From an uncultured Oscillospiraceae bacterium (GTDB taxonomy: Bacteria; Bacillota; Clostridia; Oscillospirales; Oscillospiraceae): DNA of 44,729 nt. The translations under genes and the position numbers were made by a program. Position 1 is the stretch's first letter, and each line of letters begins with the position of its first letter. The stretch is from NCBI GenBank assembly GCA_947627285.1, contig CANQVL010000019.1, positions 1 to 44,729 of the forward strand. Reading direction: 5' to 3'. Of this stretch, positions 11,022 through 36,228 are shown piece by piece. A model generated the notes under the pieces. That model ran no database searches and was not told the DNA's origin. It saw only the letters and a program-made list of their open reading frames with translations.

Positions 11022-11429
11022 ATGAACATACTTGTAATTGACGGGCAGGGCGGCAAGCTTGGAAGGACGCTGGTGGAAAACATAAAGTCCCGCTGGCCGG
11101 AGACGATCGTCACGGCGGTGGGAACCAACTCCATCGCCTCCTCCGCAATGCTCAAGGGCGGCGCCGACAGGGTAGCAACCGGGGAAAATCCCGTGATTGC
11201 CGCCTGCCGCACGGCGGACATAATCGTGGGGCCCATAGGAATCGCTATGGCGGACGCGCTGGTCGGCGAGATCTCCCCGGCGATGGCAAACGCCGTCGCC
11301 TCCGCCCGCGCCGCGCGGGTGCTGATACCCATGAACCTGTGCGACACATACGTAGCCGGAGTAACCGCCGGCTCCGCCGGCATAATGGACGACGCAATGC
11401 GGCGTATAGCATCACTTATGGGAAATTAA
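11022..11429 (+). CDS. DUF3842 family protein
   Basis: A 135-residue protein matching the DUF3842 family of Clostridia. It opens with a Rossmann-like MNILVIDGQGGKLGR nucleotide-binding loop and has the conserved LIPMNLCDTYVAGV block. Function unknown; the fold suggests nucleotide binding. GGAGG precedes ATG 11022 and the gene follows the esterase closely. The stop codon lies inside the first stem of the composite repeat that follows. Confidence 0.88.
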   Translation: MNILVIDGQGGKLGRTLVENIKSRWPETIVTAVGTNSIASSAMLKGGADRVATGENPVIAACRTADIIVGPIGIAMADALVGEISPAMANAVASARAARVLIPMNLCDTYVAGVTAGSAGIMDDAMRRIASLMGN

Positions 11430-11711
11430 TCAAAAAGGGCTTCGCCCTTTTTGATTAAGGGGAACGTGCGGAAAAAAGCCGTGAATTTTGCGAAATTCAC
11501 GGCTTTTTTCCTGCCGTCACGCTGCGCGCTCGTCGTCGCTGAAGCCGCTTAACCTCGCGTCCTCGCGAAGCGAGAACGCTCAGGCGCTCTCTTAGCTCCT
11601 CCTCTCCCCACGCAATCATGATTGCGTGGGGACCCCATATGGCAGCACACTTGCGTGACAAAAGGTGATTTTTCCGACGTACATGCCGCCGGAAAAATAT
11701 TAAATTATAGG
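11426..11711 (+). repeat. Composite hairpin repeat, copy A (expanded)
   Basis: Longest of three related elements, in sense orientation after DUF3842. Order: hairpin 1 (15 bp, 11426-11440/11444-11458, terminator-like), block GGGGAACGTGCGG, hairpin 2 (19 bp, 11470-11511, loop TGCG), long-range stem P3 (GTCACGC 11516-11522 with GCGTGAC 11653-11659), then ACAAAAGGTGA and hairpin 4 (11669-11697, TTTTTCCGACG with one A-C mismatch). Between the P3 arms lies about 130 bases absent from the other copies, holding a CTCGC/GCGAG hairpin (11562-11574) and a 26-base perfect palindrome (11606-11631). No coding sequence. It fills the whole gap to the convergent CBS gene. Confidence 0.85.
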
Positions 11712-11737
11712 TTTTTTGACGGTCTATAAATCCGCGG

Positions 11738-12169
11738 TCATTCCTCGAAAAAGGCGCCGTCTGTGGGTGGGAGGTCGCGACCGGCGAGCTCGGCTATTAG
11801 CATTCTGCGGGTCACTATCCCGCAAAGGGCGCCGCGGTCGTCCACCACCGGCACGAAATTTTGCTGGAGGGCGGCGTCGATAAGCTTATCCTCGCTGTCG
11901 GTTATCGCCACGGGCGGGCAGAAGTCCTGGCGCATTATCTCCCGCACCGTATGCGTCTCATGCTCGCCGGGGTCCACATGGCCCTGGGTGAGTATGAACC
12001 TGAGGAAGTCCCTGTCGTTGACGCACCCCAAGAATTTCCCGTTCATGTCAAGCACGGGTATGGCGGTGTACCCGTGGCGGCGCATTACCTCCACCCCCTC
12101 GCGGACAGTGTCGTTGGCGCTCAGGCACACGGTAAGGGCCTTCGGGACCATTATTTTCGCGATGTTCAT
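11738..12169 (-). CDS. CBS-domain pair protein
   Basis: A 143-residue protein made of two CBS repeats (about residues 7-62 and 75-130), each with the typical IPVLD or VPVVDD strand followed by G..T/DRDFL or GIVTRRML. Such stand-alone pairs bind adenine nucleotides and act as energy or c-di-AMP sensors, usually by regulating a partner. No enzyme or channel domain is attached and no partner is adjacent. It is convergent with DUF3842 across repeat copy A. The ligand is not deducible here. Confidence 0.88.
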   Translation of the reverse strand: MNIAKIMVPKALTVCLSANDTVREGVEVMRRHGYTAIPVLDMNGKFLGCVNDRDFLRFILTQGHVDPGEHETHTVREIMRQDFCPPVAITDSEDKLIDAALQQNFVPVVDDRGALCGIVTRRMLIAELAGRDLPPTDGAFFEE

Positions 12170-12286
12170 GTGAAACCCCCAAAAAAGTATTCCTTAATTT
12201 TATTAAAACACATAATTGTTACAAGCCGGTTAAAATTTCACCGAATTTACAAATTGTTTAAAACCGCGTTACAGCCGCGATTTCAG

Positions 12287-12315
12287 TTGCGAAACGCGGC
12301 GAGTTGGTTTAAAAT
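12287..12315 (+). promoter_or_regulatory. Probable promoter of mnmG
   Basis: TTGCGA (12287-12292), 17-base spacer, TAAAAT (12310-12315), ending 26 bases before ATG 12342. The -35 box matches only four of six positions. Confidence 0.55.
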
Positions 12316-12341
12316 AGACCCATGGAAACGGAGGCGAGCCC

Positions 12342-14204
12342 ATGGAATACCCAGCGGGAAAATGTGATATAGCTGTGATCGGCGCGGGTCACGCCGGGAT
12401 CGAGGCGGGGCTTGCCGCGGCGCGTCTTGGCTGTGAGACGGTGGTGTTCACCATCAACCTTGACGCCGTGGGGAATATGCCCTGCAACCCCGCCATAGGC
12501 GGCACCGCCAAGGGGCACCTGGTGAGGGAGCTTTCGTGCCTGGGGGGAGAGATGCCCCGGGCGGCGGACAGAGCGTGCATACAGTACCGTATGCTGAACC
12601 TGGGCAAGGGTCCGGCGGTCCACTCACTCAGGGCCCAGGCGGACCGGCGGGAGTACCAGAAGGTGATGAAGGGCGTCCTGGAGGGGCAGGAGCGTCTGCG
12701 GCTGGTCCAGGCGGAAATATCGGAAATACGCGCGGAAAACGGCGCCGTTTCCGCCGTGGTGACACGCTCCGGCGCGGTCTGGGAATGTAAAGCCGCCGTT
12801 GTTTGCACGGGCACGTACCTCAAGGGGCGCACCATTGTCGGCGACGTCACCGAGGAGAGCGGGCCGGACGGTATGCACGCCGCCGGAGCCCTCACCGACT
12901 GCCTCAGGTCCCTGGGACTCTCCCTGCGCCGCTTCAAGACAGGGACCCCGCCGAGGGTAAACGCCCGCTCCATCGACTTTTCAAAAATGGAGCTCCAGCC
13001 CGGAGACGAGCACCCGGAGCCCTTCACCTTTGACGGCGAAGCCCCGCCGGAAAATCGGGCGGTGTGCTGGCTCACCTACACAAACGAGCGCACCCACGAG
13101 ATAATCCGGGCAAACCTCCACCGCTCGCCGCTGTATTCCGGCGTCATTGACGGCGTGGGGCCCCGCTACTGTCCCTCCATTGAGACGAAGATAGTCACCT
13201 TCCCCGACAAGCCCCGCCACCAGCTGTTCATCGAGCCCATGGGTCTTGGCACGGAGGAGATGTACATCCAGGGGCTCTCCTCCTCCCTGCCTGAGGATGT
13301 TCAGGTGGAGATGCTCCACACCATACCGGGGCTTGAAAGGGCGGAGATACAGCGGTACGCCTACGCCATTGAATACGACTGCGTCGACCCCACGGAGCTT
13401 CGGCTTACGCTGGAATCCAAAAAGGTACCGGGGCTTTACGGCGCGGGGCAGTTCAACGGGAGCTCCGGCTACGAGGAGGCGGCTGTACAGGGCTTTGCGG
13501 CGGGCGTAAACGCCGCGCTGAAAATACAGGGGCGCGAGCCCATGATACTCGACCGCGCCGGGAGCTACATCGGCACGCTCATTGACGACCTGGTGACCCG
13601 AGGCACCAACGAGCCCTACCGCATGATGACCTCCCGCTCCGAGTACCGGCTCTACCTGCGCCAGGACAACGCGGACATACGCCTTTGCGCCACAGGCCAC
13701 GCCCTCGGGCTCATTTCCGATGCGCGGTACGAACGTGTTCTTGAAAAGTACGAAAAGGTCAGGCGCGAGATCTCCCGGCTTGAGTCCGCCTACGCCCCGC
13801 CCTCGGAGGAGCTGAACGCCTTTCTCCGCGACCGTGGGCAGCCGCCTGTCTCCACGGGCGTAAGCATAGCGGGGCTCATACGCCGCCCGCAGCTCGACTA
13901 CTCCTCCACCGCCCCCTTTGACCCGGCAAGGCCGGAGCTTTCGCGCGACGTGATAAAGGAGGTGGAGATTGAGCTGAAATACGCCGGCTACATCGAAAAG
14001 CAGCTGCGGCAGATAAAGGAATTTCGCCGTCTGGAGGTCAAGAAGCTCCCTCCGGACATAGATTACAACTCCATTCAGGGGCTCCGGCTCGAGGCGCGGC
14101 AGAAGCTCTCCGCCATACGCCCGGAAAATCTGGGTCAGGCGGGGCGTATATCCGGCGTCTCCCCCGCCGACGCCGCCGCGCTCATGATATATCTTGGCAA
14201 ATAA
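12342..14204 (+). CDS. mnmG: tRNA uridine-5-carboxymethylaminomethyl modification enzyme MnmG
   Basis: A 620-residue FAD protein that, with MnmE, installs carboxymethylaminomethyl at the wobble uridine of certain tRNAs. The dinucleotide fold is [11 protein letters not shown] near residue 13, followed by the family blocks [53 protein letters not shown] and [10 protein letters not shown], and a C-terminal helical domain for MnmE/tRNA binding. Length is normal. GGAGG at 12330-12334 supports ATG 12342 over the nearer ATG 12322. The usual neighbours mnmE and rsmG are not in the window. Confidence 0.98.
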
Positions 14205-14236
14205 AAACGCTGTCAAAAGGAGGCATTAATGTAAAT

Positions 14237-15001
14237 ATGTGGAACTCATTCAAAACCGACGCCTACTCCGGCATTTTGGCTGAGACGGTGGTGCTCCCCG
14301 GCCGCCGGAACGTACCGATCCACGCCTACTGGTCCCGCCCGCTGGGGACGCGGTCCGCGCCGTCTCTGGTGCTGATCCCCCATATGCCCGGCTGGGACGA
14401 GTGGTGCAGGGAGACGGCGCGGCGCTTTTCGGAGCACGGCTACGCCGTCCTGTGTCCCAACATCTACGAGGAGGTGGGCCACGGCACGCCCTCGGAGGTG
14501 GCCCAAAGGTCAATGGACCGGGGCGGCGTGCCCGACGGCGACGTGATGGGCGACGTGGCGGCGTCCCTGGGCTTTTTGAGAGCACAGCCCGCGTCCAACG
14601 GGAAGGTGGGCGTCATCGGCATGTGCTCCGGCGGACGCCACACGTTCCTCGCCGCATGCACCGTCCCCGGCATTGACGCGGCGGTGGACTGCTGGGGCGG
14701 CGGCGTGGTCTGCCCGCCGGAGAAGCTGACCCCCGCCCGGCCCGTGGCGCCCATCGACTACGCTGAGGGTCTTCAGTGCCCGCTTCTCGGCATCTTCGGC
14801 AACGAGGACTGGAACCCCACCAGGGAGGACGTGGACGTGCTGGAGGCGCGCCTGAAGGAGCTTGGCAAGGATTACGAGTTCCACCGCTACGACGGGGCGA
14901 GCCACGGCATCTGGTACTACCACCGCCCCATGTACCGGTGGGACGCCGCCATGGACTCCTTTGATAAGACGCTGGAATTTCTGGACAGGCATTTGAAATG
15001 A
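14237..15001 (+). CDS. Dienelactone hydrolase family protein
   Basis: A 254-residue alpha/beta hydrolase of the dienelactone hydrolase type. The nucleophile is Cys in GMCSGGRH, the acid is Asp in GNEDWNPT, and the His is in GASHGIWYY, the Cys-Asp-His triad of this family. Cytoplasmic, substrate unknown. AGGAGG (14218-14223) sits 13 bases before ATG 14237, unusually far; in between is an ATG immediately followed by TAA at 14229-14234 at ideal spacing. The gene end overlaps the radical-SAM gene start by ATGA, so they are coupled. Confidence 0.82.
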   Translation: MWNSFKTDAYSGILAETVVLPGRRNVPIHAYWSRPLGTRSAPSLVLIPHMPGWDEWCRETARRFSEHGYAVLCPNIYEEVGHGTPSEVAQRSMDRGGVPDGDVMGDVAASLGFLRAQPASNGKVGVIGMCSGGRHTFLAACTVPGIDAAVDCWGGGVVCPPEKLTPARPVAPIDYAEGLQCPLLGIFGNEDWNPTREDVDVLEARLKELGKDYEFHRYDGASHGIWYYHRPMYRWDAAMDSFDKTLEFLDRHLK

Positions 15002-16182
15002 GCGAAAAGCTGCCCTTTGCGGTGATGGCGAAGCCCGTGGGCTCCCGGTGCAATATGCGCTGCCGCTACTGCTACTACCTGGATAAGGGAAAATATTCCT
15101 CCCATGCCCGCCAGACGCGTATGAGCTTTGACCTACTGGAGCGGCTGATCCGCCAGACGGTGGAGGCCTCTCCGGGGCCGGTGGTATCCTTCACCTGGCA
15201 CGGCGGCGAGCCCACGCTGGCGGGTCTTGACTTCTACAAAAAGGCCGTGGAGCTGGAGCGGAGGGCCCTCCCCGCCGGGTGGACGGCTCTCAACAACCTC
15301 CAGACCAACGGACTTCTCATAAACGACGCCTGGTGCGCGTTTCTGAGGGAGAACAGCTTTGATGTGGGGCTGTCCGTTGACGGCTCCGAGGCTGTCCACG
15401 ACGCAAACCGCCGGGACATGGGCGGCAAACCCACCTTCGCCAGGGTCCGGGAGGCGGCGCGGCGGCTCATAAGGCACGGCATCGAGCCGGATATTCTCTG
15501 CACAGTCAACGCGGAGAGCGAAAAGAGGCCCCTGGAGGTCTATCGGACGCTCCGTGAGCTGGGGAGCGGCTGGATTCAGTTCATACCCATTGTGGCGAGA
15601 CGGCCTGACGGCTCAATGGCGCCGGAGTCAGTGTCGCCGGAGGGGTACGGGGACTTCCTCATCTCCTGCTTCGACGAGTGGAAGGCCCGCGACCTGGGGC
15701 GGCTTGATGTACAGCTCTTCGCGGAGATCTCCCGCGTCTGGGCGGGCGGGGAGGCGTCGGTTTGTACGATGCGCCCCGAGTGCGGACGTGTGATGGTGGC
15801 GGAGGAGGACGGGGCGGTGTACGCCTGCGACCACTTCGTGGATCCGGAGCACCGGCTGGGGAATTTGATGGGCGGAAGGCTGGAAACAATGGCAAATTCC
15901 AGTGTCCAGCTGCGCTTCGGCGAGTCTAAGAGGGCGTCTCTCACCGCCAGGTGCCGCGGCTGCCCGTGGCTGTCCGTGTGCAACGGAGGTTGTCCCAAGG
16001 ACCGTTTTGCCCTGTCCCCTGACGGGGAACCGGGTCAGCACTATCTGTGCCCCGGCATGGAAAAATTCTTTGCCCACGCGAGACCGGCGGTGGAGCGGAT
16101 GATGGAGCTGAGCCGCGGCGGGATGGGTCCGGAGGATATAATGAAAACGATTTTGGAGGAAAAAATATGCTCAAATCCATAG
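14998..16182 (+). CDS. Radical SAM/SPASM enzyme, anaerobic sulfatase-maturating type
   Basis: A 394-residue anSME-family enzyme, which converts an active-site Cys or Ser of sulfatases into formylglycine. The radical SAM cluster motif CNMRCRYC gives Cys18, Cys22 and Cys25; SFTWHGGEPTLAG is the SAM-binding GGEP motif. The C-terminal SPASM region carries the cysteines for two auxiliary clusters (CTMRPECGR, CDHF, CRGCPWLSVCNGGCPKDR). No sulfatase gene is in the window, so the target is elsewhere or it is a peptide modifier. It overlaps both its upstream (4 bases) and downstream (16 bases) neighbours. Confidence 0.9.
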   Translation: MSEKLPFAVMAKPVGSRCNMRCRYCYYLDKGKYSSHARQTRMSFDLLERLIRQTVEASPGPVVSFTWHGGEPTLAGLDFYKKAVELERRALPAGWTALNNLQTNGLLINDAWCAFLRENSFDVGLSVDGSEAVHDANRRDMGGKPTFARVREAARRLIRHGIEPDILCTVNAESEKRPLEVYRTLRELGSGWIQFIPIVARRPDGSMAPESVSPEGYGDFLISCFDEWKARDLGRLDVQLFAEISRVWAGGEASVCTMRPECGRVMVAEEDGAVYACDHFVDPEHRLGNLMGGRLETMANSSVQLRFGESKRASLTARCRGCPWLSVCNGGCPKDRFALSPDGEPGQHYLCPGMEKFFAHARPAVERMMELSRGGMGPEDIMKTILEEKICSNP

Positions 16183-16901
16183 TTCTTGCCGCCGGCAAGG
16201 GCACGCGCCTTGCTCAGGAGGGCATCGACCTGCCCAAGGCCATGCGCCTCGCCCTGAATAAGCCCCTGCTGAGGTGGGTGCTCGACGCCCTTCCCACGGG
16301 CAAGGAGGACACCGTTATAGTTGTGGGCTACAAGAAGGAATACATACTTGCCGCCTTCCCTGAATATGTCCACGCCGAGCAGACGGAGCAGCTGGGCACC
16401 GGACACGCCGTCATGTGCGCCGTCCCCGCGCTGGGGGACCACAGCGGCGACGTGCTCATATGCTGCGGCGATATGCCGCTGGTGCGCCCGGAGACCTACG
16501 CGGCGCTGGTGGAGGAGCACAAGAGGAGCGGCGCCGCCTGCACCGTCCTCTCCGGCGTTTCCGACGAGCCGCTCCCCTTCGGGCGCGTCCTGCGGGACGA
16601 AAACGGCGGCTTTGACCGGATAGTTGAGGATCGGGACTGCACCGCCGAGCAGAAAATGGTGCGGGAGCTCAACTCCGGCATACTTGTGGTCAACGCCAAA
16701 AAAATGGCCTCCGCCCTGGGTGAGCTCAGGACCGACAACGCCCAGGGGGAATACTACCTCACCGACCTGCCACTCATACTCAAGTCCCGCGGCGAAAGGG
16801 TCGGCGTATGTGTGCGCAGCATGGGCGACGAGCTCATAGGTGTCAACACCCCCGCCCAGCTTGCCCAGGTGGAGGAGATACTGTCAAAGCGCCAAGGCTG
16901 A
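16167..16901 (+). CDS. GlmU-like sugar nucleotidyltransferase, single domain
   Basis: A 244-residue nucleotidyltransferase matching the N-terminal uridylyltransferase half of GlmU: LAAGKGTRLAQ at the start, DLPKAM, EQLGTGHAVMCA, CGDMPLVRPET, and ELNSGILVVN. It lacks the roughly 200-residue left-handed beta-helix acetyltransferase domain of full GlmU, so it can at most make a UDP-sugar (UDP-GlcNAc or related) from a sugar-1-phosphate. GGAGGA precedes ATG 16167 by 6 bases; the start lies inside the end of the radical-SAM gene. This is a natural single-domain form, since the frame ends cleanly at 16901. Confidence 0.82.
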   Translation: MLKSIVLAAGKGTRLAQEGIDLPKAMRLALNKPLLRWVLDALPTGKEDTVIVVGYKKEYILAAFPEYVHAEQTEQLGTGHAVMCAVPALGDHSGDVLICCGDMPLVRPETYAALVEEHKRSGAACTVLSGVSDEPLPFGRVLRDENGGFDRIVEDRDCTAEQKMVRELNSGILVVNAKKMASALGELRTDNAQGEYYLTDLPLILKSRGERVGVCVRSMGDELIGVNTPAQLAQVEEILSKRQG

Positions 16902-16928
16902 CAGTCGCGGCAAACCGTCAAGAAAGGC

Positions 16929-16957
16929 TTGACAGCGGGGATTTTATCTGCTACAAT
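16929..16957 (+). promoter_or_regulatory. Promoter of the TPP riboswitch-thiT transcript
   Basis: TTGACA (16929-16934), 17-base spacer, TACAAT (16952-16957), directly upstream of the aptamer. Confidence 0.88.
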
Positions 16958-16967
16958 TCGTCTTGCA

Positions 16968-17055
<88 letters not shown>

Positions 17056-17080
17056 CGGGGGTATTTTTGCGCCCGTTTTC

Positions 17081-17114
17081 TTTCCGTCCGGCATTGTCCA
17101 GGCGGAAATTTTTT
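17081..17114 (+). terminator. Riboswitch expression-platform terminator
   Basis: TTTCCGTC (17081-17088) pairs with GGCGGAAA (17101-17108, one G-U pair), followed by T6 at 17109-17114 and then the ribosome site GGAGG. It is a transcriptional switch. Confidence 0.8.
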
Positions 17115-17128
17115 CGGAGGTAACAAAA

Positions 17129-17740
17129 ATGGACGACAAAAAAGAAAAACAGGCAAAAACGGCGGCAAGCTCCCACAGCCGCGTAATGCACATCGTTGAG
17201 GGCGCCATGATGGTGGCGCTGGCGGTGCTTCTGGACTATCTGGTCCTCTACAAGCTCCCCGACGGCGGCTCCATCACCCTAAAGCTCATCCCCATCGTCT
17301 TCTTCGCCGTTCGCTACGGCTGCGGCTGGGGCTTCCTGGCGGGGCTTGTATTCGGCGGGCTCAACTACATAAGCGGCAACGGCGTCGCCATCGACTGGAC
17401 CAGCATCATCTGCGACTACTTCCTCGCCTTCGGGCTCCTGGGCTTCGGCGCGGGACTTTTCAAGGGCAAAAAGCTCTCCGCGATATGGGGCTCCGTCGTG
17501 GGCGGACTTCTGATGTTCGCCTCCAGCTACCTGGTGGGCGTGTTCGTCTGGGCAAGGAACCTGTCGGCTGCCGATCCCTGGGACTTCCTGGGCATAACCT
17601 TCACCAACCCCTGGTTCTACTCCCTAGTATATAACGGCACCTGGGCGCTCCCCTGCATTATCCTTGCCGTTGTTGTCTTCGCGCTTCTCTATCAGGTCAA
17701 GCCCGTCAGACGTCTCCTTGACCGGGCGGACCTCAAATAA
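17129..17740 (+). CDS. thiT: Energy-coupled thiamine transporter ThiT
   Basis: A 203-residue integral membrane S-component of an ECF transporter that binds thiamine outside the cell. About six helices follow a charged N-terminus. Family features are the VEGAMMVALAVLLDYL helix, KLPDGGSITLKLIPI, and a late W-rich segment (FTNPWFYSLVYNGTW) that contributes to the thiamine pocket. GGAGG at 17116-17120 supports ATG 17129. Control by the upstream TPP riboswitch confirms the assignment. The ECF ATPases and T-protein are not in the window and are presumably shared. Confidence 0.95.
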   Translation: MDDKKEKQAKTAASSHSRVMHIVEGAMMVALAVLLDYLVLYKLPDGGSITLKLIPIVFFAVRYGCGWGFLAGLVFGGLNYISGNGVAIDWTSIICDYFLAFGLLGFGAGLFKGKKLSAIWGSVVGGLLMFASSYLVGVFVWARNLSAADPWDFLGITFTNPWFYSLVYNGTWALPCIILAVVVFALLYQVKPVRRLLDRADLK

Positions 17741-17756
17741 AAATCCGCTTAAAAAG

Positions 17757-17791
17757 GCCCGGCGCCCTCCGGTTTGGGAGAGGCGCCGGGC
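17757..17791 (+). terminator. Terminator after thiT
   Basis: GCCCGGCGCC pairs with GGCGCCGGGC, extended by inner CTCC/GGAG, followed by TTATTTTACTTT. It also faces the convergent MATE gene. Confidence 0.85.
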
Positions 17792-17796
17792 TTATT

Positions 17797-19131: not shown

Positions 19132-19155
19132 GCCGCCACTTCCCCTTGAGGTTTT

Positions 19156-19197
19156 TGTTTATAAACATATTATACAACCTGTTTCCGCAGTTGTCAC
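19156..19197 (-). promoter_or_regulatory. Promoter and candidate operator of the MATE gene
   Basis: On the minus strand, GTGACA (complement of 19192-19197), 17 bases, perfect TATAAT (complement of 19169-19174). A 12-base perfect palindrome TGTTTATAAACA (19156-19167) covers the predicted start site, a position where a repressor would block initiation. Confidence 0.72.
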
Positions 19198-19223
19198 CTG
19201 AAACATGTGCCGCCGCACGCTTT

Positions 19224-20255: not shown

Positions 20256-20394
20256 TTTCGCTTCTCTCTTTCTGTTGGGTTTTCTTTATGATAGCACGTT
20301 TATGTATCACATATGTATAAGATCCCCCGTGGATTTCGCTCCGGGGCCAGCCCGTTCCGATTTTCCCCGGCGAACACCGGAACCGGAAACATTT

Positions 20395-21995: not shown

Positions 21996-22151
21996 GTCCC
22001 CGCACCCCTTCCCTGTGCTTTATGAGAACGTCCTCACCTTATAAATACCTTTTTCGGTTGAAATTCTTACATGGGCTTATTAGATTTTAATTCAAAAAGT
22101 CGTTTTTTTGTTGAAGACCGGAAAGGCGGCGCTCTCCCAGTCTCCCGCGCG

Positions 22152-22192: not shown

Positions 22193-22243
22193 GCAGGATT
22201 TAATTTGGGCTGAAGGGCGTTTGTACAGTCCCTTCAATCAAGC

Positions 22244-23380
<1,137 letters not shown>

Positions 23381-24653: not shown

Positions 24654-24672
24654 CCCCTAAATTTCGCAAAAT

Positions 24673-24860
24673 CTCAAATTAAATATTTTTCCGACGGCAT
24701 GTACGTCGGAAAAATTTCCTTTTGTCGCACAAGTGTGTGACCCTTCGGGTCACGCGCGCAGCGCGACAGCATGGAAGCCCCCGTGAAAGGTCCGCAGACC
24801 TTTCACGGGGGCTTCCCGCACGTTCCCCCTTCCCAAAAAGGGCAACGCCCTTTTTGGGAA
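24673..24860 (-). repeat. Composite hairpin repeat, copy B
   Basis: Minus-strand copy, beginning 5 bases after the htrA stop. Sense order: hairpin 1 (24830-24860, CCCAAAAAGGGC type, terminator-like), GGGGGAACGTGCGG, hairpin 2 (24773-24816, 20-bp stem, loop TGCG), P3 (pairing 24723-24728 with 24763-24768) enclosing a 7-bp hairpin (24737-24753), CACACT and ACAAAAGG, and hairpin 4 (24686-24714, 11 bp perfect, 7-base loop), then an AT-rich tail like that of copy A. It separates the convergent kinase-like and htrA genes and contains no coding sequence. Confidence 0.85.
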
Positions 24861-24865
24861 AGTTT

Positions 24866-26416: not shown

Positions 26417-26542
26417 TTCGATTCTCTCCTTTTCGGGGACTTCCTCCCCTTGAATGACCTAATAGTACCCCCATTTTATGACTATTTCATGACCAAACTA
26501 AAAATATTATTGAAATTGGGGATTTAATTTTTGTGAATTGAG

Positions 26543-26551
26543 TGATACAAT
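26543..26551 (+). promoter_or_regulatory. Extended -10 promoter of uvrA
   Basis: TGATACAAT fits an extended -10 element 63 bases before the uvrA ATG; no good -35 box is seen. The region 26417-26613 separates divergent htrA and uvrA; no LexA-like box was recognised. Confidence 0.45.
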
Positions 26552-26613
26552 AGAATTTACTGTTCCGATACTTTTACCGTTCTGAAATAATTTTTATCTT
26601 CAAGGAGCAAATT

Positions 26614-29466: not shown

Positions 29467-29477
29467 AATCATCACAC

Positions 29478-29509
29478 CGCGGCGCGGGACCTTAAAGCCC
29501 CGCGCCGCG
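29478..29509 (+). terminator. Hairpin after uvrA
   Basis: An 11-bp GC-rich stem (CGCGGCGCGGG with CCCGCGCCGCG) 12 bases after the uvrA stop, followed by TCTTG rather than a clear T run, so possibly a weak terminator. Confidence 0.6.
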
Positions 29510-29511
29510 TC

Positions 29512-29540
29512 TTGACATTTCACTCATTTCGGGATACACT
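29512..29540 (+). promoter_or_regulatory. Promoter of the second MATE gene
   Basis: TTGACA (29512-29517), 17 bases, TACACT (29535-29540). It starts only 2 bases after the uvrA hairpin. Confidence 0.75.
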
Positions 29541-29580
29541 GTCTCCCAAACTATATTCAATCTTATACTTGAGGCGTTTT

Positions 29581-30912
29581 ATGCAAATAAAGCTCTCCGA
29601 CCACTTCACATATTCCGGGCTCCTTCGGTTCACCCTTCCCAGTATGGCGATGATGCTGTTCACCTCCGTCTACGTGGTGGTGGACGGATTTTTTGTGTCC
29701 AATTTCGTGGGCAAGGAGGCGCTGGCGGGGGTCAATTTCATCTATCCCTTTTTGATGATCCTCGGCACTGTGGGCTTCCTCTTCGGCACAGGCGGCGGGG
29801 CGCTGGTGGCGATAACCATGGGCGAGGGGGACCCGAAAAGGGCAAACGAGCTGTTCTCCCTCTTTGTGTACGTTTCCCTGGGGCTGGGCGCGGCGTTCAC
29901 CCTCCTGGGCTTTGTCATGCTCCGCCCCGTGGCTGTTTGGATGGGCGCTGAGGGGGAAATGCTGGAGGACGCCCTCACCTACGGGCGCTGGTATTTGATG
30001 TCCTTGCCGCTTTTCATAGTCGAGCACGAGTTTGAAAGCTTCACCGTCACCGCCGAAAAGCCCCGTCTCGGGCTATTTTTCAACCTTGCCGCCGGCATGA
30101 CAAACATCGTCCTTGACGCCGTGCTCGTGGGCGTCCTTCGCATGGGTATAGACGGCGCGGCGGTGGCGACGGCGCTGTGCCAAACGGTGGGCGGCGCGGG
30201 ACCGCTCATATACTTCTCCCGCAAAAACTCAAGTCTCCTGCGCCTCGGGCGCACACACTGGGACGGCAAAGCTCTTATCAGGTGCGTCGGCAACGGCTCC
30301 AGCGAGCTCATGAGCAACATCTCCATGTCCCTGGTGGGTATTCTCTACAACATACAGCTCCTGCGCATAGCAGGCGAGGACGGCGTGGCGGCATACGGGA
30401 CCATCATGTACGTGAACATGGTGTTCATCGCCGTATTCATCGGCTACTCCATAGGCTCCGCGCCGGTCATAGGCTACCACCACGGAGCCGGCGACAAAGC
30501 GGAGCTCAAGTCGCTTTTGAAAAAGAGCCTGGTGATCCTCGGCGTCATGTCCGTGGCGATGCTTGTGTTCGGCGAGACCATGTCCGGGCCCGTGGCGAGG
30601 ATATTTGTGGGCTACGACGACGCGCTCATGGATATGACGCGGGACGGCTTCCGCCTGTACTCCACCATGTTCATCTTTTCCGGCTACGCCATATTCGGCT
30701 CGTCCCTCTTTACCGCCCTGGGCGACGGCGTGACCTCCGCCGTCATATCCGGGCTGCGCACGATGGTGTTTGAAACCGCCTCGGTCCTGCTTCTCCCGTT
30801 GGCGCTGGGTCTTTCCGGCATATGGCTCTCCGCGCCCCTGGCCGAGGCTATGAGCGTGGTTTTGTCCGGGTTCTTTCTGGTCAAAAAGAGGGATAAATAC
30901 GGATATTTCTGA
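29581..30912 (+). CDS. MATE family efflux transporter (second)
   Basis: A 443-residue MATE transporter with about twelve helices, different in subgroup from the one at 17797. The start MQIKLSDHFTYSGLLRFTLPSM and the block TSVYVVVDGFFVSNFVGKEALAGVNF are typical of the Clostridia DinF/NorM-like branch, and the second half has FSGYAIFGSSLFTALGDG. ATG 29581 is chosen over an upstream start at 29512, which would lie in the promoter. The ribosome site is weak (GAGG). Substrate unknown; probably an independent transcript from the promoter at 29512. Confidence 0.9.
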   Translation: MQIKLSDHFTYSGLLRFTLPSMAMMLFTSVYVVVDGFFVSNFVGKEALAGVNFIYPFLMILGTVGFLFGTGGGALVAITMGEGDPKRANELFSLFVYVSLGLGAAFTLLGFVMLRPVAVWMGAEGEMLEDALTYGRWYLMSLPLFIVEHEFESFTVTAEKPRLGLFFNLAAGMTNIVLDAVLVGVLRMGIDGAAVATALCQTVGGAGPLIYFSRKNSSLLRLGRTHWDGKALIRCVGNGSSELMSNISMSLVGILYNIQLLRIAGEDGVAAYGTIMYVNMVFIAVFIGYSIGSAPVIGYHHGAGDKAELKSLLKKSLVILGVMSVAMLVFGETMSGPVARIFVGYDDALMDMTRDGFRLYSTMFIFSGYAIFGSSLFTALGDGVTSAVISGLRTMVFETASVLLLPLALGLSGIWLSAPLAEAMSVVLSGFFLVKKRDKYGYF

Positions 30913-30978
30913 CGCCCACGGATCGGATACATTATGGTGCGCCGCTTTCGCGCCTGCCAAAGCATTCGTCAGCTTCGG

Positions 30979-32085
30979 TCACACCAACACCGTCAGCAAG
31001 AGCAGGGCCGCCAGGAACAATACGTTCCACAGTGTGAATACGCCCAGGTATTTCCCCTTGAGCTCCGGGGAGCGGCGGGCGACCTGCTTGTAGGATATGA
31101 GGCTCGCCATTGACGCTATGAGCGTCCCGAGCCCGCCGATGTTCACGCCGACGAGCAGGTCCCTCCAGTCGGTGGTAAAGCCCCCCAGCAAAAGCGCCGC
31201 GGGGACGTTGCTGATGACCTGCGAAAGCCCCGCCGACACCCCCAGTACATGACCGTCGAGCACAGAAAGCACGGCGTTTTTGAAGGGCTCAAAGCGTCCC
31301 ATGTTGCCGATGAACACGAAAAACGCCAGGAACGTGGCAAGGAGGCTGTAATCCACCCGCAGGAGCAGTCTCCAATTTTTCACCGCCACGGCAATTACCA
31401 CTGCCGGCAGGAGCACCCAGATGCTCACAAGCTTTGCCACAGCCAGGACGCAGAGTACAAAAAGCGCCCCGAAATACGCAAGGTCAAAGCGCTTTATCTC
31501 AGCTCCTCCGCCCTCAAGCTCCACCCTCACCGGCAAATTCCTCACCGTCAGCGCGGACAGCGCCAGAAGGACGGCGGAAAAGGCGGCGTATGGCGCGACG
31601 GTGGCAACAAACTCCCCAAGCCCCATGTCGGATACGGAGTAGATATACAGGTTCTGCGGGTTGCCTATGGGCGTGAGCATACTTCCCAGATTTGCGGCGA
31701 CGGTCATTAAGGTCACGGTGAGGCACATGGAGTCCGTTCGCCCCTCCATGTCGAATATCATTATCGCCAGCGGCACGAAGGTTATCAGCGCCACGTCGTT
31801 TGTGATGAGCATGGAGCTCATAAAGCACAGGGCGATGAGCGTCAGCGTCAGCCCCCGCCGGTTTTTCAGCCTGCGGAGCAGTCCCTCGGCAAGCCGCCGG
31901 AAAAGCCCCAGCTCCCGCAGTCCCGCCATGACCGCCATAAGGCAGAAAAGCACAACGAGGGTGTCCCAGTTTATGTAGTCAAAATAGCCCCTGTCCGGCG
32001 GCACGAGAAAGCACGACGCCATGGCAAGCAGCGCCGCGGCGCAAAGCACCGTCTCGTCCGCGAAAACCTTGAGAATTTTCTTCAT
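30979..32085 (-). CDS. SLC13/ArsB-NhaD superfamily anion permease
   Basis: A 368-residue membrane protein with about ten helices. The blocks FMSSMLITNDVALITFVPLA and NLGSMLTPIGNPQNLYIY match the two helix-reentrant repeats of the ion transporter superfamily, where NP and SN/TP motifs bind ion and substrate. It likely moves a di- or tricarboxylate, or another anion. It lies downstream of the cysteine desulfidase-like gene with a 74-base gap, perhaps one transcript. The substrate cannot be assigned. Confidence 0.83.
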   Translation of the reverse strand: MKKILKVFADETVLCAAALLAMASCFLVPPDRGYFDYINWDTLVVLFCLMAVMAGLRELGLFRRLAEGLLRRLKNRRGLTLTLIALCFMSSMLITNDVALITFVPLAIMIFDMEGRTDSMCLTVTLMTVAANLGSMLTPIGNPQNLYIYSVSDMGLGEFVATVAPYAAFSAVLLALSALTVRNLPVRVELEGGGAEIKRFDLAYFGALFVLCVLAVAKLVSIWVLLPAVVIAVAVKNWRLLLRVDYSLLATFLAFFVFIGNMGRFEPFKNAVLSVLDGHVLGVSAGLSQVISNVPAALLLGGFTTDWRDLLVGVNIGGLGTLIASMASLISYKQVARRSPELKGKYLGVFTLWNVLFLAALLLLTVLV

Positions 32086-32159
32086 TTTTTACTCCGTTTT
32101 AACGAATATCCGCACCACAGGCCCCTTCTCCCGAGGCTCCACAGTCGTGGCTGTCGCCT

Positions 32160-33437
32160 TTACTCCCCGCCCATCATAAGGCGCAAGATCTCATTGTCCG
32201 TCTCCCGCATACCCTCGCGGGCAAGGCGGCTCACGGCGTCGATGGTGTTCTCCACGCCCTTTATGACGATCCCGTCGCCGCCCACAAACTCGCTCCCCTG
32301 CCGGTTCATGCTCCAGCCCAGGAGCCCCGCCTCCACAGCGGAGGCGATCTTCGCGGCGCAGCTCGCCTTTGCCCCGTCGCAGATCATGCCGGAGTTTATG
32401 GCGAGGGCGTTCACCACCGTGTGGGCTATCTCCTCGTATCCGCCGCCGTAGAGGAAGCATATCCCCGCCCCGGCCCCGGCGCCGGCGCTGGTGGCGCCGC
32501 AGTAGGCGGAAAGGGCGCCGATGCCGTCCTTCAGGTGTACCGTCACAAGGTTGGAAACCAAAAGCGCCCGCAGGAGCGTGTCCCGGGACACGCCCAGTTC
32601 ATTCGCGTAGACTATCACCGGCACGCTGGCGGTTATGCCCTGGTTGCCGGAGCCGGAATTTATTATCACCGGCAGCTCGCACCCGCTCATCCGCGCGTCC
32701 GACCCGGCGGCGGCGTACGCCTTTGCCCGGTTCCAGACGGTGGAGCCGTAGGAGCTGAGCAGTATCCTCCCGATCTCCGCGCCCCAGCCGCCCCGCAGTC
32801 CCTCCCCGGCGATGGCCATATTGAGCTCCATCTGCCTTGAAAGCACGGGCCGCACCTCCTCCAGGTCCACCCCGCGCGCGTACTCCACAATGTCACGAAC
32901 GGTGAGAAGCTCCCGCCTTCCCTCGGGCTTCACGGTCTCCCCGGAATATGGTGCGTCCACCAGAACCGCGCCGTTTTTCTCCACCCGCACCACGTTCGTG
33001 TGGTGCCCGGTTATACGCACAAGCGCCGTATCCTCTCCGGCGGCAAGGCGGACCTGGATGTCAAATGGGCAGGGGGAATCGGACCTGCTCACCGCGATGG
33101 GAACGCTCTCCAAAAATCCGTCAAGCCTCGCAAGCTCCGCCTGCGCAACGCCCGGCAGCACCTCCAGCTCCCGGTCCGGGTCCCCGCAGACGATCCCGGC
33201 GGCGACGGCGGCTCCCAGCCCCCTCCTGCCGCCGGTGTGGGGGACTATCACGCTTTTGACGTTCTTTATTATGTTGCCGGAGACGGCAAGCTCCACCCTC
33301 TCCGGCGCTCTCCCCAGCTCCCTCCGGGCTAACGCTCCCGAGTAAGCCACGGCGATGGGCTCGGTACACCCCATGGCGGGTACGAGCTGTTCCTTCAATA
33401 TCCGCGTGTACTCTCTCCACAGCGCGTTTTTCTCCAC
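32160..33437 (-). CDS. L-cysteine desulfidase/L-serine dehydratase-like enzyme (UPF0597, CyuA family)
   Basis: A 425-residue iron-sulfur enzyme of the UPF0597 family. Cys in LVPAMGCTEPIAVAY, the block HTGGRRGLGAA, and SGMICDGAKASCAAK are the family cluster-binding signatures. Members such as E. coli CyuA break down cysteine to pyruvate, ammonia and sulfide; database names often call them L-serine ammonia-lyase alpha subunit. The start is GTG 33437 with GAGGTGA upstream. The neighbouring permease could supply or export its substrate or product. Confidence 0.85.
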   Translation of the reverse strand: MEKNALWREYTRILKEQLVPAMGCTEPIAVAYSGALARRELGRAPERVELAVSGNIIKNVKSVIVPHTGGRRGLGAAVAAGIVCGDPDRELEVLPGVAQAELARLDGFLESVPIAVSRSDSPCPFDIQVRLAAGEDTALVRITGHHTNVVRVEKNGAVLVDAPYSGETVKPEGRRELLTVRDIVEYARGVDLEEVRPVLSRQMELNMAIAGEGLRGGWGAEIGRILLSSYGSTVWNRAKAYAAAGSDARMSGCELPVIINSGSGNQGITASVPVIVYANELGVSRDTLLRALLVSNLVTVHLKDGIGALSAYCGATSAGAGAGAGICFLYGGGYEEIAHTVVNALAINSGMICDGAKASCAAKIASAVEAGLLGWSMNRQGSEFVGGDGIVIKGVENTIDAVSRLAREGMRETDNEILRLMMGGE

Positions 33438-33467
33438 CTTCTCACCTCATTCATCTCCGTCATTTCC

Positions 33468-33498
33468 AAAAAGTGCCCGGAGCGTCCGGGCACTTTTT
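33468..33498 (-). terminator. Terminator at the end of the pentose operon
   Basis: A 14-bp perfect stem (AAAAAGTGCCCGGA with TCCGGGCACTTTTT), GCG loop and flanking T run on the minus strand, directly after the transaldolase stop. Confidence 0.93.
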
Positions 33499-33511
33499 TA
33501 TTTATATTGCA

Positions 33512-34165
33512 TTACTCACCGAAAACGGCTATGTAGTCCTTCTTGAACTTCTCGATCCCGGCATCGGTCAGGGGGTGATGTATCATCTGCTCGATGACGG
33601 AATAGGGTATCGTGGCGATGTGCGCCCCCGCCAGCGCGCACTGGGTGACGTGGATGGGGTTGCGGATGGAGGCGCAGATGATCTCGGTGTCAAAGCCGTA
33701 GTTGTCAAAGATGGTGACGATGTCCTCGATGAGCGCCACGCCCTCGGTGGAGATGTCGTCAAGCCTTCCGAGGAACGGGCTTACGTAGGTCGCCCCCGCG
33801 CGGGCGGCGAGAAGCGCCTGGTTCGCGGTGAAGATCAACGTCACGTTGGTCTTTATCCCCTCGGAGTGCAGGACCTTGACGGCCTTGAGCCCCTCGGCGG
33901 TCATGGGAATCTTCACCACCATGTTGGGGTGAATGGCGGCGATCTCCCGCCCTTCCCTTATCATGCCCTCGGCGTCGGTGGTGGTCGCCTTCACCTCGCC
34001 GGAGATGGGCCCGTCAACGATGGAGGTGATCTCGCGTATTACCTCCTTGAAGTCCCTGCCCTCCTTGGCGATAAGGCTGGGGTTTGTGGTTACTCCGCAG
34101 ATGACGCCCAGGTCGTTTGCCTTTCGGATGTCCTCCACGTGAGCGGTGTCGATGAAAAGCTTCAT
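33512..34165 (-). CDS. Transaldolase/fructose-6-phosphate aldolase family (TalC/Fsa)
   Basis: A 217-residue short transaldolase. Signature blocks: [33 protein letters not shown], the Schiff-base Lys in VVKIPMT, and ASIRNPIHV. It moves a dihydroxyacetone unit between sugar phosphates in the non-oxidative pentose phosphate pathway. It ends the minus-strand pentose operon, 27 bases after transketolase. Short members can be either transaldolases or fructose-6-phosphate aldolases; the transketolase neighbours favour transaldolase. Confidence 0.93.
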
Positions 34166-34192
34166 GGTAATTTTCCTCCTATATGATTAGTA

Positions 34193-35131
34193 TTAAAGCT
34201 CTTTGGCAGTCTTTGCGATGTTCTCCGCGCTGAGCCCGAACTGCTTCAAAAGCGGCACGGCGGGACCGGAGTGACCGAACTCGTCGTTTACGCCCACGCG
34301 CTTCACCTTGCAGGGTATGCCGGACTCGGCGACGGCGGCGCAGACCGCCTCGCCCAGGCCGCCGATTATGCTGTGCTCCTCGGCGGTAACTATCCTTCCG
34401 CACTCCCTTGCCGCCTTCAGGACAAGCTCGTCGTCCAGGGGCTTTACTGTGCACATATTGATGACCCTGGCGCTTATCCCCTCGCCCGCAAGCTGCTCCG
34501 CCGCCTGAAGCGCCTCGTAGACCATGAGCCCCGTGGCGATGATGGCCACGTCTCCGCCCTCACGGAGCGTCTCGCCCTTTCCTATCTCAAATTTGAAATC
34601 TTTCTCGTCGTGGAACACGGGTATCGCCAGGCGCCCGAACCGCAGGTACACGGGGCCCACGTGCTCATAGGCGGCGCGGACCGCGGCCTCCGCCTCCACC
34701 GCGTCGGAGGGGCACAGCACCACCATTCCGGGAATGGAGCGCATGAGGGCGAAGTCCTCACAGCACTGGTGTGACGCGCCGTCCTCGCCCACGGAGATAC
34801 CGCCGTGAGTCGCGCCGATCTTCACGTTCAAATGGGGGTAGCCGATGGAGTTGCGCACCTGCTCAAAGGCGCGCCCGGCGGCAAACATGGCAAAGGAGCT
34901 GGCAAAGGGCACAAGCCCCATGCTCGCCGCTCCGGCGGCGACCGCCATCATGTTCCCCTCGGCTATGCCGCACTCAAAATGCCTGTCGGGGAAGGCCTTC
35001 CTGAATACGCCCGTCTTTGTGGCGGCGGCAAGGTCCGCCTCGAACACCACTAAATCCTCATGCTCCGCGCCAAGCTTTGCCAGGGCCGCGCCGTAGGCGT
35101 CGCGGGTCGCCATTTTTTTCACATCTGCCAT
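34193..35131 (-). CDS. Transketolase C-terminal subunit
   Basis: A 312-residue half-transketolase holding the pyrimidine-binding and C-terminal domains. FECGIAEGNMMAVAAG carries the catalytic Glu that activates thiamine; THGGISVGEDGASHQ is the conserved loop, and GRIVTAEEHSIIGGLG the C-terminal domain. It starts 1 base after the stop of the N-terminal half. Two-gene transketolases are normal in many Clostridia, so this is not a broken gene. It acts with the other half and transaldolase on xylulose-5-phosphate. Confidence 0.95.
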   Translation of the reverse strand: MADVKKMATRDAYGAALAKLGAEHEDLVVFEADLAAATKTGVFRKAFPDRHFECGIAEGNMMAVAAGAASMGLVPFASSFAMFAAGRAFEQVRNSIGYPHLNVKIGATHGGISVGEDGASHQCCEDFALMRSIPGMVVLCPSDAVEAEAAVRAAYEHVGPVYLRFGRLAIPVFHDEKDFKFEIGKGETLREGGDVAIIATGLMVYEALQAAEQLAGEGISARVINMCTVKPLDDELVLKAARECGRIVTAEEHSIIGGLGEAVCAAVAESGIPCKVKRVGVNDEFGHSGPAVPLLKQFGLSAENIAKTAKEL

Positions 35132-35132
35132 C

Positions 35133-35978
35133 TTATTTCGCCTCCAGTTCCGCCAATTTCGCGTTCAATTCGCTCATCGCGACCTCATACTCGGCGTCGT
35201 TGGGCGCCTTTCCATGCCACTCCACGGAGTTTGTCATGTAGCTTACGCCGGTGCCCTTGACGGTGTGCATGACGATTCCAAAGGGCTTGCCCTTTGTCTC
35301 CCGCGCCCTGTTGAAGGCCGCCTCCATCTCGTCAAAGTCGTGCCCGTTTATTTCCACCGTCTCAAAGCCGAAGGCCCGCATTTTTGCGGCGATGTCGCCG
35401 GAGTCCATAACGTCCTTTGTGGGCCCGTCGATCTGAAGCCCGTTCTTGTCCACGATCGCCACGAAGTTGTCAAGCTTGTAGTTGGCGGCGAACATAAACG
35501 CCTCCCAGACCTGCCCCTCCTCGATCTCTCCGTCGCCCAGGAGCGTGTACACCCGGCAGGACTTGCCCATGTACTTTGCCGCCTTCGCCATTCCGGCGGC
35601 GCAGCTGACGCCCTGTCCCAGGGAGCCCGTGGACATATCCACTCCCGGCGTCATGTTCATGTTGGGGTGCCCCTGAAGGTGGCTGCCTATCTGCCGCAGG
35701 GTCTTCAGATCCTCCCAGGGGAAGAAGCCCCTGAGAGCCAGCGCCGCGTAAAGCCCCGGCGCGGTGTGGCCCTTGGAGAGCACAAACCGGTCACGGTCGG
35801 GGTTTTGGGGGTCGGCGGGGTCAACGTTCAGCTCCTTGAAATAGAGGTAGGTGAACAGGTCGGCGGCTGAGAGTGAGCCGCCCGGATGCCCCGCCTTTGC
35901 CGCATGGGTCCCCTCAATGATCCCCATACGGACCCGAGTCGCCATAATGGCAAGTTCTTTCTTCTCTTCCAGTGTCAT
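35133..35978 (-). CDS. Transketolase N-terminal subunit
   Basis: A 281-residue half-transketolase holding the thiamine pyrophosphate-binding domain: HAAKAGHPGGSLSAADLF, LSKGHTAPGLYA, MSTGSLGQGVS, and GDGEIEEGQVWEA with the downstream N (VDKNGLQ) as the metal/TPP motif. ATG 35978 starts the conserved MTLEEKKEL and follows GGAGGA; the open frame runs much further upstream through repeat copy C but without family similarity. Repeat copy C lies upstream, between it and araD. Confidence 0.95.
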   Translation of the reverse strand: MTLEEKKELAIMATRVRMGIIEGTHAAKAGHPGGSLSAADLFTYLYFKELNVDPADPQNPDRDRFVLSKGHTAPGLYAALALRGFFPWEDLKTLRQIGSHLQGHPNMNMTPGVDMSTGSLGQGVSCAAGMAKAAKYMGKSCRVYTLLGDGEIEEGQVWEAFMFAANYKLDNFVAIVDKNGLQIDGPTKDVMDSGDIAAKMRAFGFETVEINGHDFDEMEAAFNRARETKGKPFGIVMHTVKGTGVSYMTNSVEWHGKAPNDAEYEVAMSELNAKLAELEAK

Positions 35979-36053
35979 TTTGTCCTCCTGATTAAATAAA
36001 TGAAATAATAAAAAGATGAAATTACCGCCCGAGCCAAAACTTAAATCCAAACA

Positions 36054-36228
36054 TTTTTCCGACGGCATGTACGTCGGAAAAATCACCTTTTGTTTTGCGG
36101 AGTGTGCGGCTCTGTGAGCCGTGCGCGAAGCAAAACAGCAGGAAAATTTTTTCTGAATTTCGCAAAATTCAGAAAAATTTTCCGCACGCATCCCCTTTGC
36201 CAAAAAAGGCAAAGCCTTTTTTGGCAAA
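36054..36228 (-). repeat. Composite hairpin repeat, copy C
   Basis: Minus-strand copy, sense to araD. Sense order: hairpin 1 (36196-36228, 15-bp stem, AAAAAAGGC core), GGGGATGCGTGCGG, hairpin 2 (36141-36183, loop TGCG, one bulge), P3 (36091-36098 with 36130-36137, 8 bp) enclosing a CGGCTC/GAGCCG hairpin (36107-36121), CACACT, ACAAAAGGTGA and hairpin 4 (36054-36082, identical to copy B). An extra hairpin (36236-36259) sits between araD and hairpin 1. It is located inside the pentose gene cluster and could act as an internal terminator or processing site. Confidence 0.85.

What the first reader, a model, noticed from the sequence alone, without database searches (positions are those of the whole stretch)
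11426..36228. Three-copy composite multi-hairpin intergenic repeat family
Copies at 11426-11711 (+), 24673-24860 (-) and 36054-36228 (-) share the same order: A-rich/G-rich hairpin 1, a GGGG..CGTGCGG block, hairpin 2 capped by TGCG, a long-range stem P3 around variable hairpins, a CACACT motif, ACAAAAGG, and hairpin 4 built on TTTTTCCGACG. Hairpin 4 is identical in copies B and C. It encodes no protein and fits no feature type I recognise; it may be a structured RNA family or a non-autonomous structured mobile element.
Basis: seen in the sequence. Interest (0 to 1): 0.78.

Follow-up and report, generated by a model that had tools for sequence, protein, structure and literature searches.

The report
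Mini-transposons lodged at gene terminators
The three repeats are copies of a small non-coding mobile DNA element, present about a hundred times or more in this gut bacterium, that carries the end sequences of a transposon family known to jump into hairpin-shaped DNA, sits mostly just behind genes, and at some sites stands where a close relative keeps an ordinary transcription stop signal.

Summary
The three window copies share one architecture, and a covariance model finds about 114 copies or more in this 2.8 Mb genome; 23 of 34 genomes of the genus match. Rfam has no convincing match. It is best read as a MITE, a non-autonomous transposon. Its better preserved copies end in two kinds of terminal repeat, and the same two kinds bound IS1182-family insertion sequences in this genome and genus. 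Seven of 10 such IS loci are flanked on both sides by one identical palindrome. Like IS1272 (PMC5678879, PMC4923244), the element goes to stem-loops: a few copies have a terminator doubled around them, and at 3 of 5 sites empty in a ~95%-identical relative, window copy A among them, that relative has a plain terminator-like hairpin. Its first hairpin faces a gene end in 101 of 118 copies and may serve as replacement terminator. Hairpin P2 is 98.2% Watson-Crick paired over 82 different arms and often differs between orthologues, which points to DNA-level hairpin copying and exchange. A P3-P4 core recurs in other genera, unexplained.

The parts
11426..11728 (+). Copy A, insert-bearing type; its P1 overlaps the stop codon of the upstream + ORF (11022..11429)
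   Evidence: right end; orthologous site in G015 (L086) has a terminator-like hairpin instead
11426..11458 (+). P1 of copy A (left terminal repeat in its 5' arm; A-tract/GC stem/T-tract, terminator-like)
   Evidence: sequence; pattern
11459..11471 (+). GGGGAACGTGCGG block of copy A
11470..11511 (+). P2 of copy A (perfect stem, TGCG loop)
11516..11659 (+). P3 of copy A (GTCACGC 11516-11522 / GCGTGAC 11653-11659) enclosing the ~100-nt insert
   Evidence: similar insert in L036 and L040
11669..11697 (+). P4 of copy A
11711..11728 (+). right terminal repeat GTTTTTTGACGGTCTATA
   Evidence: 3 mismatches to the pattern
24655..24860 (-). Copy B, between convergent ORFs; low-coordinate end estimated, right repeat not recognised
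24830..24860 (-). P1 of copy B
24773..24816 (-). P2 of copy B; the orthologue in G015 has a different, also paired P2
24686..24714 (-). P4 of copy B
36028..36228 (-). Copy C, between two co-directional ORFs; low-coordinate end estimated, right repeat not recognised
36196..36228 (-). P1 of copy C
36140..36183 (-). P2 of copy C; the orthologue in G015 differs
36054..36082 (-). P4 of copy C, identical to that of B
36232..36268 (-). optional upstream block ACTGGC-hairpin-TGCCA (P0), seen before a minority of copies

Best explanation
The repeats are MITEs: short transposons without a transposase, moved by IS1182-family transposases. Their ends are terminal repeats of two kinds, (A)GCTTGTCAAAAAA...TTTTTTGACAGTCTGA and (A)GCTTGTGGACAAA...TTTGTCAACAGTCTGA, matching two kinds of IS1182 element in the genus. 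The transposase picks stem-loops by shape, mostly intrinsic terminators behind genes, and either doubles the stem-loop around the element or leaves the element in its place. The left-end hairpin P1 (A-tract, GC stem, T-tract) then sits at the stop codon and probably terminates the upstream gene, which would make the insertion tolerable and could explain the orientation. After insertion the stems stay nearly perfect while their sequence drifts, through fold-back template switching, and P2-P3 segments are exchanged among copies. Shown: copies, ends, IS with the same ends, duplications, empty sites, orientation, stem statistics. Inferred: movement in trans, terminator activity of P1, template switching, exchange between copies.
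For: Partner: a right-end pattern (21 hits, 1 for the reversed control) led to a complete IS in contig C11 (L146) with repeats TTCAGTCTGTCGACAAAC/GTTTGTCTACAGTCTGAA and the same 23-bp palindrome on both sides; its 537-aa frame is IS1182 transposase (NF033551, 440 bits, cut-off 270). Seven of 10 IS1182 loci scanned (L146, L160-L165) have such repeats and an identical palindrome on both sides; five have the one kind of repeat, two the other. Ends: right repeat at 3 mismatches or fewer in 15 of 118 copies (0 in each of three controls), left repeat in 19 of 118 (0 in two controls) (the strings were chosen from the IS and from good copies). Flanks: direct repeats of 11 nt or more in 6 of 118 copies against 0.2% of mismatched pairs, two of the six being orthologues; in L050 a whole 32-nt terminator hairpin is doubled. 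Empty sites: 5 of 34 G000 copies with both flanks mapped have no element in G015; three of the five G015 sites hold a strong hairpin (-25.9, -30.0, -29.8 kcal/mol), one (L080/L118) shows a 10-bp duplication. Orientation: P1 faces the 3' end of a same-strand gene in 101 of 118 (56 of 62 in the own genome), 3 between divergent genes. Stems: 2144 Watson-Crick, 28 G-U, 12 other pairs in 115 copies, 82 distinct arms.
Against: Most of the 118 copies have no recognisable right end (103) and no flanking repeat of 11 nt (112). Five genomes of the genus with 19 or more repeat matches (G013, G015, G020, G024, G027) gave no IS1182 match, and G006 has an IS1182 match without the repeat (drafts). The weak end of the IS1182 search is unspecific: it rings in 6 of 14 control genomes. 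Of the 10 IS loci scanned, one has other repeats, one none found, one is cut. The interior is not derived from any of the 12 IS loci scanned (no P4). One empty site (L051) has no hairpin. Two genomes polarise insertion against loss only where there is a duplication. The 118 copies include orthologous pairs. Terminator activity and transposition were not measured.
Confidence: 0.85

Rival explanations
1. A structured non-coding RNA family: the hairpins act in the 3' untranslated RNA or as an independent transcript, and the copies are many genomic genes of that RNA.
For: Fixed order of hairpins, 23 of 47 consensus pairs with changes on both sides; a P3 stem with changed arms and the motifs CRCACTT or CRCGTTT next to P4 recurs in other genera.
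Against: No Rfam match at gathering score, only chance-level ones below it; 1.3% G-U in P2; P2 differs even next to the loop in 13 of 27 orthologous pairs at ~95% flank identity; insertion polymorphism, terminal repeats and duplications are those of a transposon. Expression was not examined.
Confidence: 0.1
2. A REP/BIME- or BOX-like mosaic repeat spread by another mechanism (for example a tyrosine transposase of the RAYT kind), the IS1182 resemblance of the ends being secondary.
For: Mosaic, modular hairpins in intergenic regions; no P4 in the IS1182 loci scanned.
Against: Two kinds of terminal repeat each match an IS1182 subgroup of the genus, and both elements and IS show doubled palindromes.
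Confidence: 0.06
3. Stems are kept by RNA-level selection (terminators, mRNA 3' protection) with compensatory point mutations, without template switching or exchange between copies. This concerns how the stems evolve and can hold together with the MITE reading.
For: P1 has a GC run followed by 4 or more T in 84 of 118 copies; position at gene ends; 3 of 11 same-class orthologous P2 differ on one arm only.
Against: Few G-U or mismatched pairs; 13 of 27 orthologous pairs differ even in the six loop-proximal bases of P2; in L034 one P3 arm is the exact complement of the other over 26 bp.
Confidence: 0.25

Closest known systems
MITEPye1 of Paracoccus yeei (PMC11578231; passages seen)
   Same: MITE whose terminal repeats resemble IS1182-family IS; preferentially intergenic; folds into stem-loops.
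   Different: 1-3 copies per chromosome there, about 114 or more here; the passages seen do not speak of terminators as targets or of a multi-hairpin core.
ISMac2-related MITEs of Methanosarcina acetivorans (PMC3852290; table rows seen)
   Same: IS1182-family MITEs of 160 and 169 bp, 14 and 7 copies.
   Different: Other organism and sequence; nothing about hairpin targets in the passages seen.
IS1272 and TnSha1 of staphylococci, IS1182 family (PMC5678879, PMC4923244; abstracts and passages seen)
   Same: Insert into stem-loops, several of them terminators, without sequence preference; the published model allows replacement or duplication of the stem-loop.
   Different: Autonomous or composite elements; insertions in both orientations are described there, whereas here P1 faces the gene end in 101 of 118.
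BOX/RUP/SPRITE of pneumococcus (review PMC10969869; passages seen); REP/BIME (recalled)
   Same: Modular intergenic hairpin repeats, some terminator-like.
   Different: Other transposition systems (recalled); RAYT not tested here.

Membership tests
MITE (non-autonomous transposon) | short, many copies, no transposase | tested here: met
   about 190-300 nt, 114 copies or more; too short for a transposase; short ORFs inside were not examined
MITE (non-autonomous transposon) | terminal inverted repeats shared with an autonomous IS in the same genome or genus | tested here: met
   recognisable at 3 mismatches in 15 (right) and 19 (left) of 118 copies only
MITE (non-autonomous transposon) | target duplication or precise empty site | tested here: met
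   6 of 118 copies with 11 nt or more; clean empty site L080/L118; not seen in the other 112
MITE (non-autonomous transposon) | mobilised in trans | not testable with these tools
   needs a transposition assay
IS1182 family (of the partner) | IS1182 transposase | tested here: met
   NF033551 440 bits, PF13751, PF05598
IS1182 family (of the repeat itself) | encodes a transposase | tested here: not met
   search of the own genome with the transposase gave three places, in C11, C27 and C18, none in the window's contig
structure-dependent insertion as in IS1272 | stem-loop replaced or duplicated at the site | tested here: met
   IS: 7 of 10 loci with a doubled palindrome; repeat: hairpin doubled at L050/L033, diverged doubles at L028 and L095, hairpin in the empty orthologue at 3 of 5 sites, none at L051, weak at L118
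Rfam RNA family | score above a family's gathering threshold | tested here: not met
   window; 7 loci, permissive threshold
REP/BIME with RAYT | associated TnpA_REP tyrosine transposase | not tested
   no search made

The most novel reading that the evidence does not exclude
An old MITE lineage spread over at least seven other genera of the family shares a P3-P4 core that does not come from the insertion sequences seen: paired stems of changing sequence with constant motifs beside them and a 29-nt P4 palindrome kept at 91-97% identity even in another family of the order. The core would be a structure read as folded DNA (or RNA) with its own task, for instance capture of structure-seeking transposases, so that covariation usually taken as the mark of an RNA gene would here be produced by DNA hairpin recognition and DNA hairpin copying, while the left end serves as a portable replacement terminator.
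Probability: 0.35. Interest if true: 0.75.

Novelty: new variant of a known kind. Interest (0 to 1): 0.55.

Why it matters
About one such element per 25 kb stands between genes, mostly at a gene end, so the family may supply many of the genome's transcription stops. If P1 really replaces terminators, insertions that remove a stop signal are made harmless by the element itself. The stems are also a warning: strong covariation (23 of 47 consensus pairs changed on both sides), normally taken as the mark of an RNA gene, may be built up in a transposon by DNA hairpin copying and exchange between copies. With some hundred copies in each of two close relatives this is a good natural test set for stem-loop-targeted transposition and for template-switch evolution of hairpins.

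Tried and rejected
Rfam at gathering and at permissive threshold: nothing at the copies beyond hits that look like chance and lie below the families' gathering scores. A test of similarity between the 5' arm of P1 and the reverse complement of the region behind P4 in the same copy gave only a weak excess (11.9% against 5.6%), probably because most ends have decayed; the test against consensus repeats was clearer but its strings were partly chosen from the copies. A first naive ORF choice gave mixed orientations, with long antisense ORFs picked; it was replaced by a codon-usage choice and only that is used. The script failed; the P1 and P4 columns are unreliable and not used; the script failed and was repeated. 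The cross-genus MAFFT alignment misaligned the P3 5' arms and was dropped; P3 pairing was tested directly, where the window can also catch another hairpin, as at L130. PMC6053426 (passages) has an abundant MITE ascribed to another IS and was set aside. Rows dropped: insert-bearing copies are not among the 118; 3 of the 118 without a TGCG-loop hairpin are not in the P2 count; 3 of 30 orthologous pairs without a measurable P2 in one member are not in the 27; L168 was fetched but not scanned for ends. The mean P4 difference printed is inflated by shifted frames and not used. A few gap values (L096/L015, L100/L028, L074) are alignment effects or, at L100/L028, a bare hairpin in G000 against a full copy in G015; they are not counted as empty sites. 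Considered and not pursued: RAYT/REP partner, integron attC sites, group II intron ends.
Full report
Check of the observation. The three copies read as described and align over their whole length. From the gene side outward each has: hairpin P1 with an A-tract, GC core and T-tract; a GGGG..CGTGCGG block; a long hairpin P2 capped by TGCG; a long-range stem P3 around an inner hairpin; CACACT; ACAAAAGG; and P4, TTTTTCCGACG-loop-CGTCGGAAAAA (CGCCGG in A). Copy A has about 100 nt more in the P3 loop. The window is contig C19 of a 2.8 Mb draft genome. A blastn-type search with copy B lists about 40 further places. A covariance model from 21 copies gave 150 hits in the genome: 90 at 85 bits or more; the other 60 are 24 pairs of neighbouring halves and 12 single weak hits. 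Window A and L036 show that such pairs are copies with a loop insert; the other pairs were not read. That makes 114 copies or more; 150 of 1542 candidates were scored.

Distribution. In a draw of 200 genomes of the family 30 match, three of them of this genus; in a draw of 295 of the order 10 match. Outside the genus the matches are mainly the P4 region, 74-97% identical, and 91-97% in four genomes of genus g112 of another family. The GTDB scan with an exact 41-nt pattern gave 26 stretches, 25 in one species, CANPYX01, an Oscillospiraceae MAG of sample Lapin-001, and one in a second bin of the same sample (the own genome may be left out there). Its model hits are those of G015, so I take them as the same genome; its matching flanks are mostly 93-98% identical to ours.

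Position. I collected 118 non-identical copies without loop insert and with a readable P1, 62 from G000 and 56 from G015; orthologous pairs are both counted. With genes chosen by codon usage, P1 faces the 3' end of a same-strand gene in 101 of 118; 54 lie between convergent genes, 43 between co-directional ones, 4 have no gene called downstream. Of the other 17, 11 lie reversed between co-directional genes, 3 between divergent genes, 3 have no gene called upstream. In the own genome alone it is 56 of 62. Of the 101, P1 begins -20 to +8 nt from the stop codon in 66, +17 to +55 in 24, farther in 11; in the second group I often see another hairpin between gene and element.

Ends and partner. Copy L080 is absent in G015: the site there reads through, and ours has a 10-bp direct repeat on both sides, which puts the right end about 26 nt beyond P4. 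Direct repeats of 11 nt or more flank 6 of 118 copies, against 0.2% of mismatched flank pairs: L050 (a complete 32-nt terminator hairpin), its orthologue L033, L028, L080, L124 and L095; at L028 and L095 similar but diverged hairpins stand on both sides. A right-end pattern with up to 3 mismatches hit the own genome 21 times, once when reversed. Two of the hits face each other in contig C11 and bound a complete insertion sequence (L146) of about 1.65 kb with the same 23-bp palindrome on both sides. Its frame is an IS1182-family transposase. The own genome also has an interrupted relative in C27 and a distant IS1182 in C18. In the genus 20 of 34 genomes match the family model and 8 exceed its cut-off; the search rings in 6 of 14 control genomes, over the cut-off in one. 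Presence of IS1182 and of the repeat do not match one to one: G013, G015, G020, G024 and G027 have the repeat without an IS1182 match, G006 the reverse. I read the ends of 10 IS1182 loci: 7 have the same kind of repeats and one identical palindrome on either side. Five (L161-L165) have CAGNYTGTCAAAAAA-type repeats and two (L146, L160) CAGTCTGTCGACAAAC-type; L166 has other repeats, at L159 none were found, L167 is cut by the contig end. These are the two types of end seen in the repeat. In the 118 copies the right repeat is found with 3 mismatches or fewer in 15 (0 in each of three controls) and the left in 19 (0 in two controls) (strings partly chosen from the copies).

Targets. Of 34 G000 copies whose two flanks map together in the G015 stretches at hand, 5 have no element there. 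At three of these, window copy A among them, G015 has a strong terminator-like hairpin (-25.9, -30.0, -29.8 kcal/mol); at L051 there is no hairpin, at L118 a weak one. This agrees with the published behaviour of IS1272, an IS1182-family member that inserts into stem-loops and replaces them, with a model that also allows duplication of the stem-loop (PMC5678879, abstract and passages; PMC4923244, passages). I infer that the same structure-directed transposition placed these elements.

Stems. P2 pairs over 115 copies: 2144 Watson-Crick, 28 G-U, 12 neither, with 82 different 5' arms; 84 of the 115 have Watson-Crick pairs only. Of 27 orthologous pairs with P2 readable in both, 3 are identical, 11 share the six loop-proximal bases (7 with changes on both arms, 3 on one arm only, 1 by length), and 13 differ even there, while flanks average 95-96% identity. 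In L011/L040 P1 and flanks are shared but P2 and the P3 loop are of another copy type, as expected from exchange between copies. In L034 the two sides of P3 are exact complements over 26 bp, unlike the other copies printed. Template switching in replication is a known way to make and mend hairpins (PMC8794818, abstract). I take exchange plus template switching as the likely cause; selection for terminator or folded-DNA function may act as well.

Other genera. Around P4 matches in other genera 20 loci were fetched. Read in our orientation, a left-repeat-like motif stands upstream in 7 of 20 and CTCTGCGAG with up to 2 mismatches behind P4 in 13 of 20 (no control made for these two). A stem of 7 bp or more in the P3 position is present in 8 of 20 against 10 of 380 mismatched pairs; the arms differ (CAGGCCGC/GCGGCCTG, CGGCCCGC/GCGGGCCG, CATCACGC/GCGTGATG and others) while CRCACTT or CRCGTTT recurs beside them. 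P3-bearing loci come from seven genera (g22, g89, g77, g34, g84, g44, g23). None of the 12 IS loci scanned contains P4. So the core seems older than the genus and not a remnant of these IS; its role is open.

Relation to print. IS1182-related MITEs are known: MITEPye1 (PMC11578231, passages) and ISMac2-related ones (PMC3852290, passages). Searches for IS1182 with palindromes, MITE, terminator and stem-loop, for IS1272 with stem-loop replacement, and for the bacterial family names with miniature inverted or intergenic repeat listed nothing that I recognise as this family; of the larger result sets only the first 12-15 titles were seen, and the library holds open-licence PMC papers only. I therefore call it a new variant of a known kind.

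Noticed in passing
window 44475-44665 (+): malK-I RNA motif, 112 bits.
   Followed up: no
window 16961-17068 (+): TPP riboswitch, 57.9 bits.
   Followed up: no
window 1722-1891 (-): Two tRNA genes.
   Followed up: no
window 36232-36268 (-); also L004, L009, L024, L026, L036, L082: A second small repeat, (A)ACTGGC-hairpin-TGCCA, stands behind stop codons and before a minority of the copies; its hairpin also varies with pairing kept.
   Followed up: partly
L149 around 2010-2056; L150; L148: Reduced forms: a bare P1-like hairpin made of two facing terminal repeats (L149), P1 plus right end (L150), and a form without P2-P3 (L148).
   Followed up: partly
L031 1628-1669: P4 stem replaced by another hairpin (CGCGAGGC..GCCCCGCG) inside an otherwise normal copy.
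   Followed up: no
L010 1526-1793: Partial second copy without P1-P2 directly behind a full copy.
   Followed up: no
L146 1268-2881: The transposase frame runs beyond the right end of the IS (about 2838) and stops in the flank; a passage of PMC4923244 says the same of IS1272.
   Followed up: no
L146, right of the IS: A third, slightly different copy of the flanking palindrome (CGCTAAGCG for CGTTAAACG, changed on both sides) with similar neighbouring sequence follows further right.
   Followed up: no
G015: Carries a similar number of copies but no IS1182 transposase match was found; draft assembly.
   Followed up: no
G236, G259, G277, G319 (another family of the order): The P4 palindrome recurs at 91-97% identity over 29-35 nt.
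   Followed up: no
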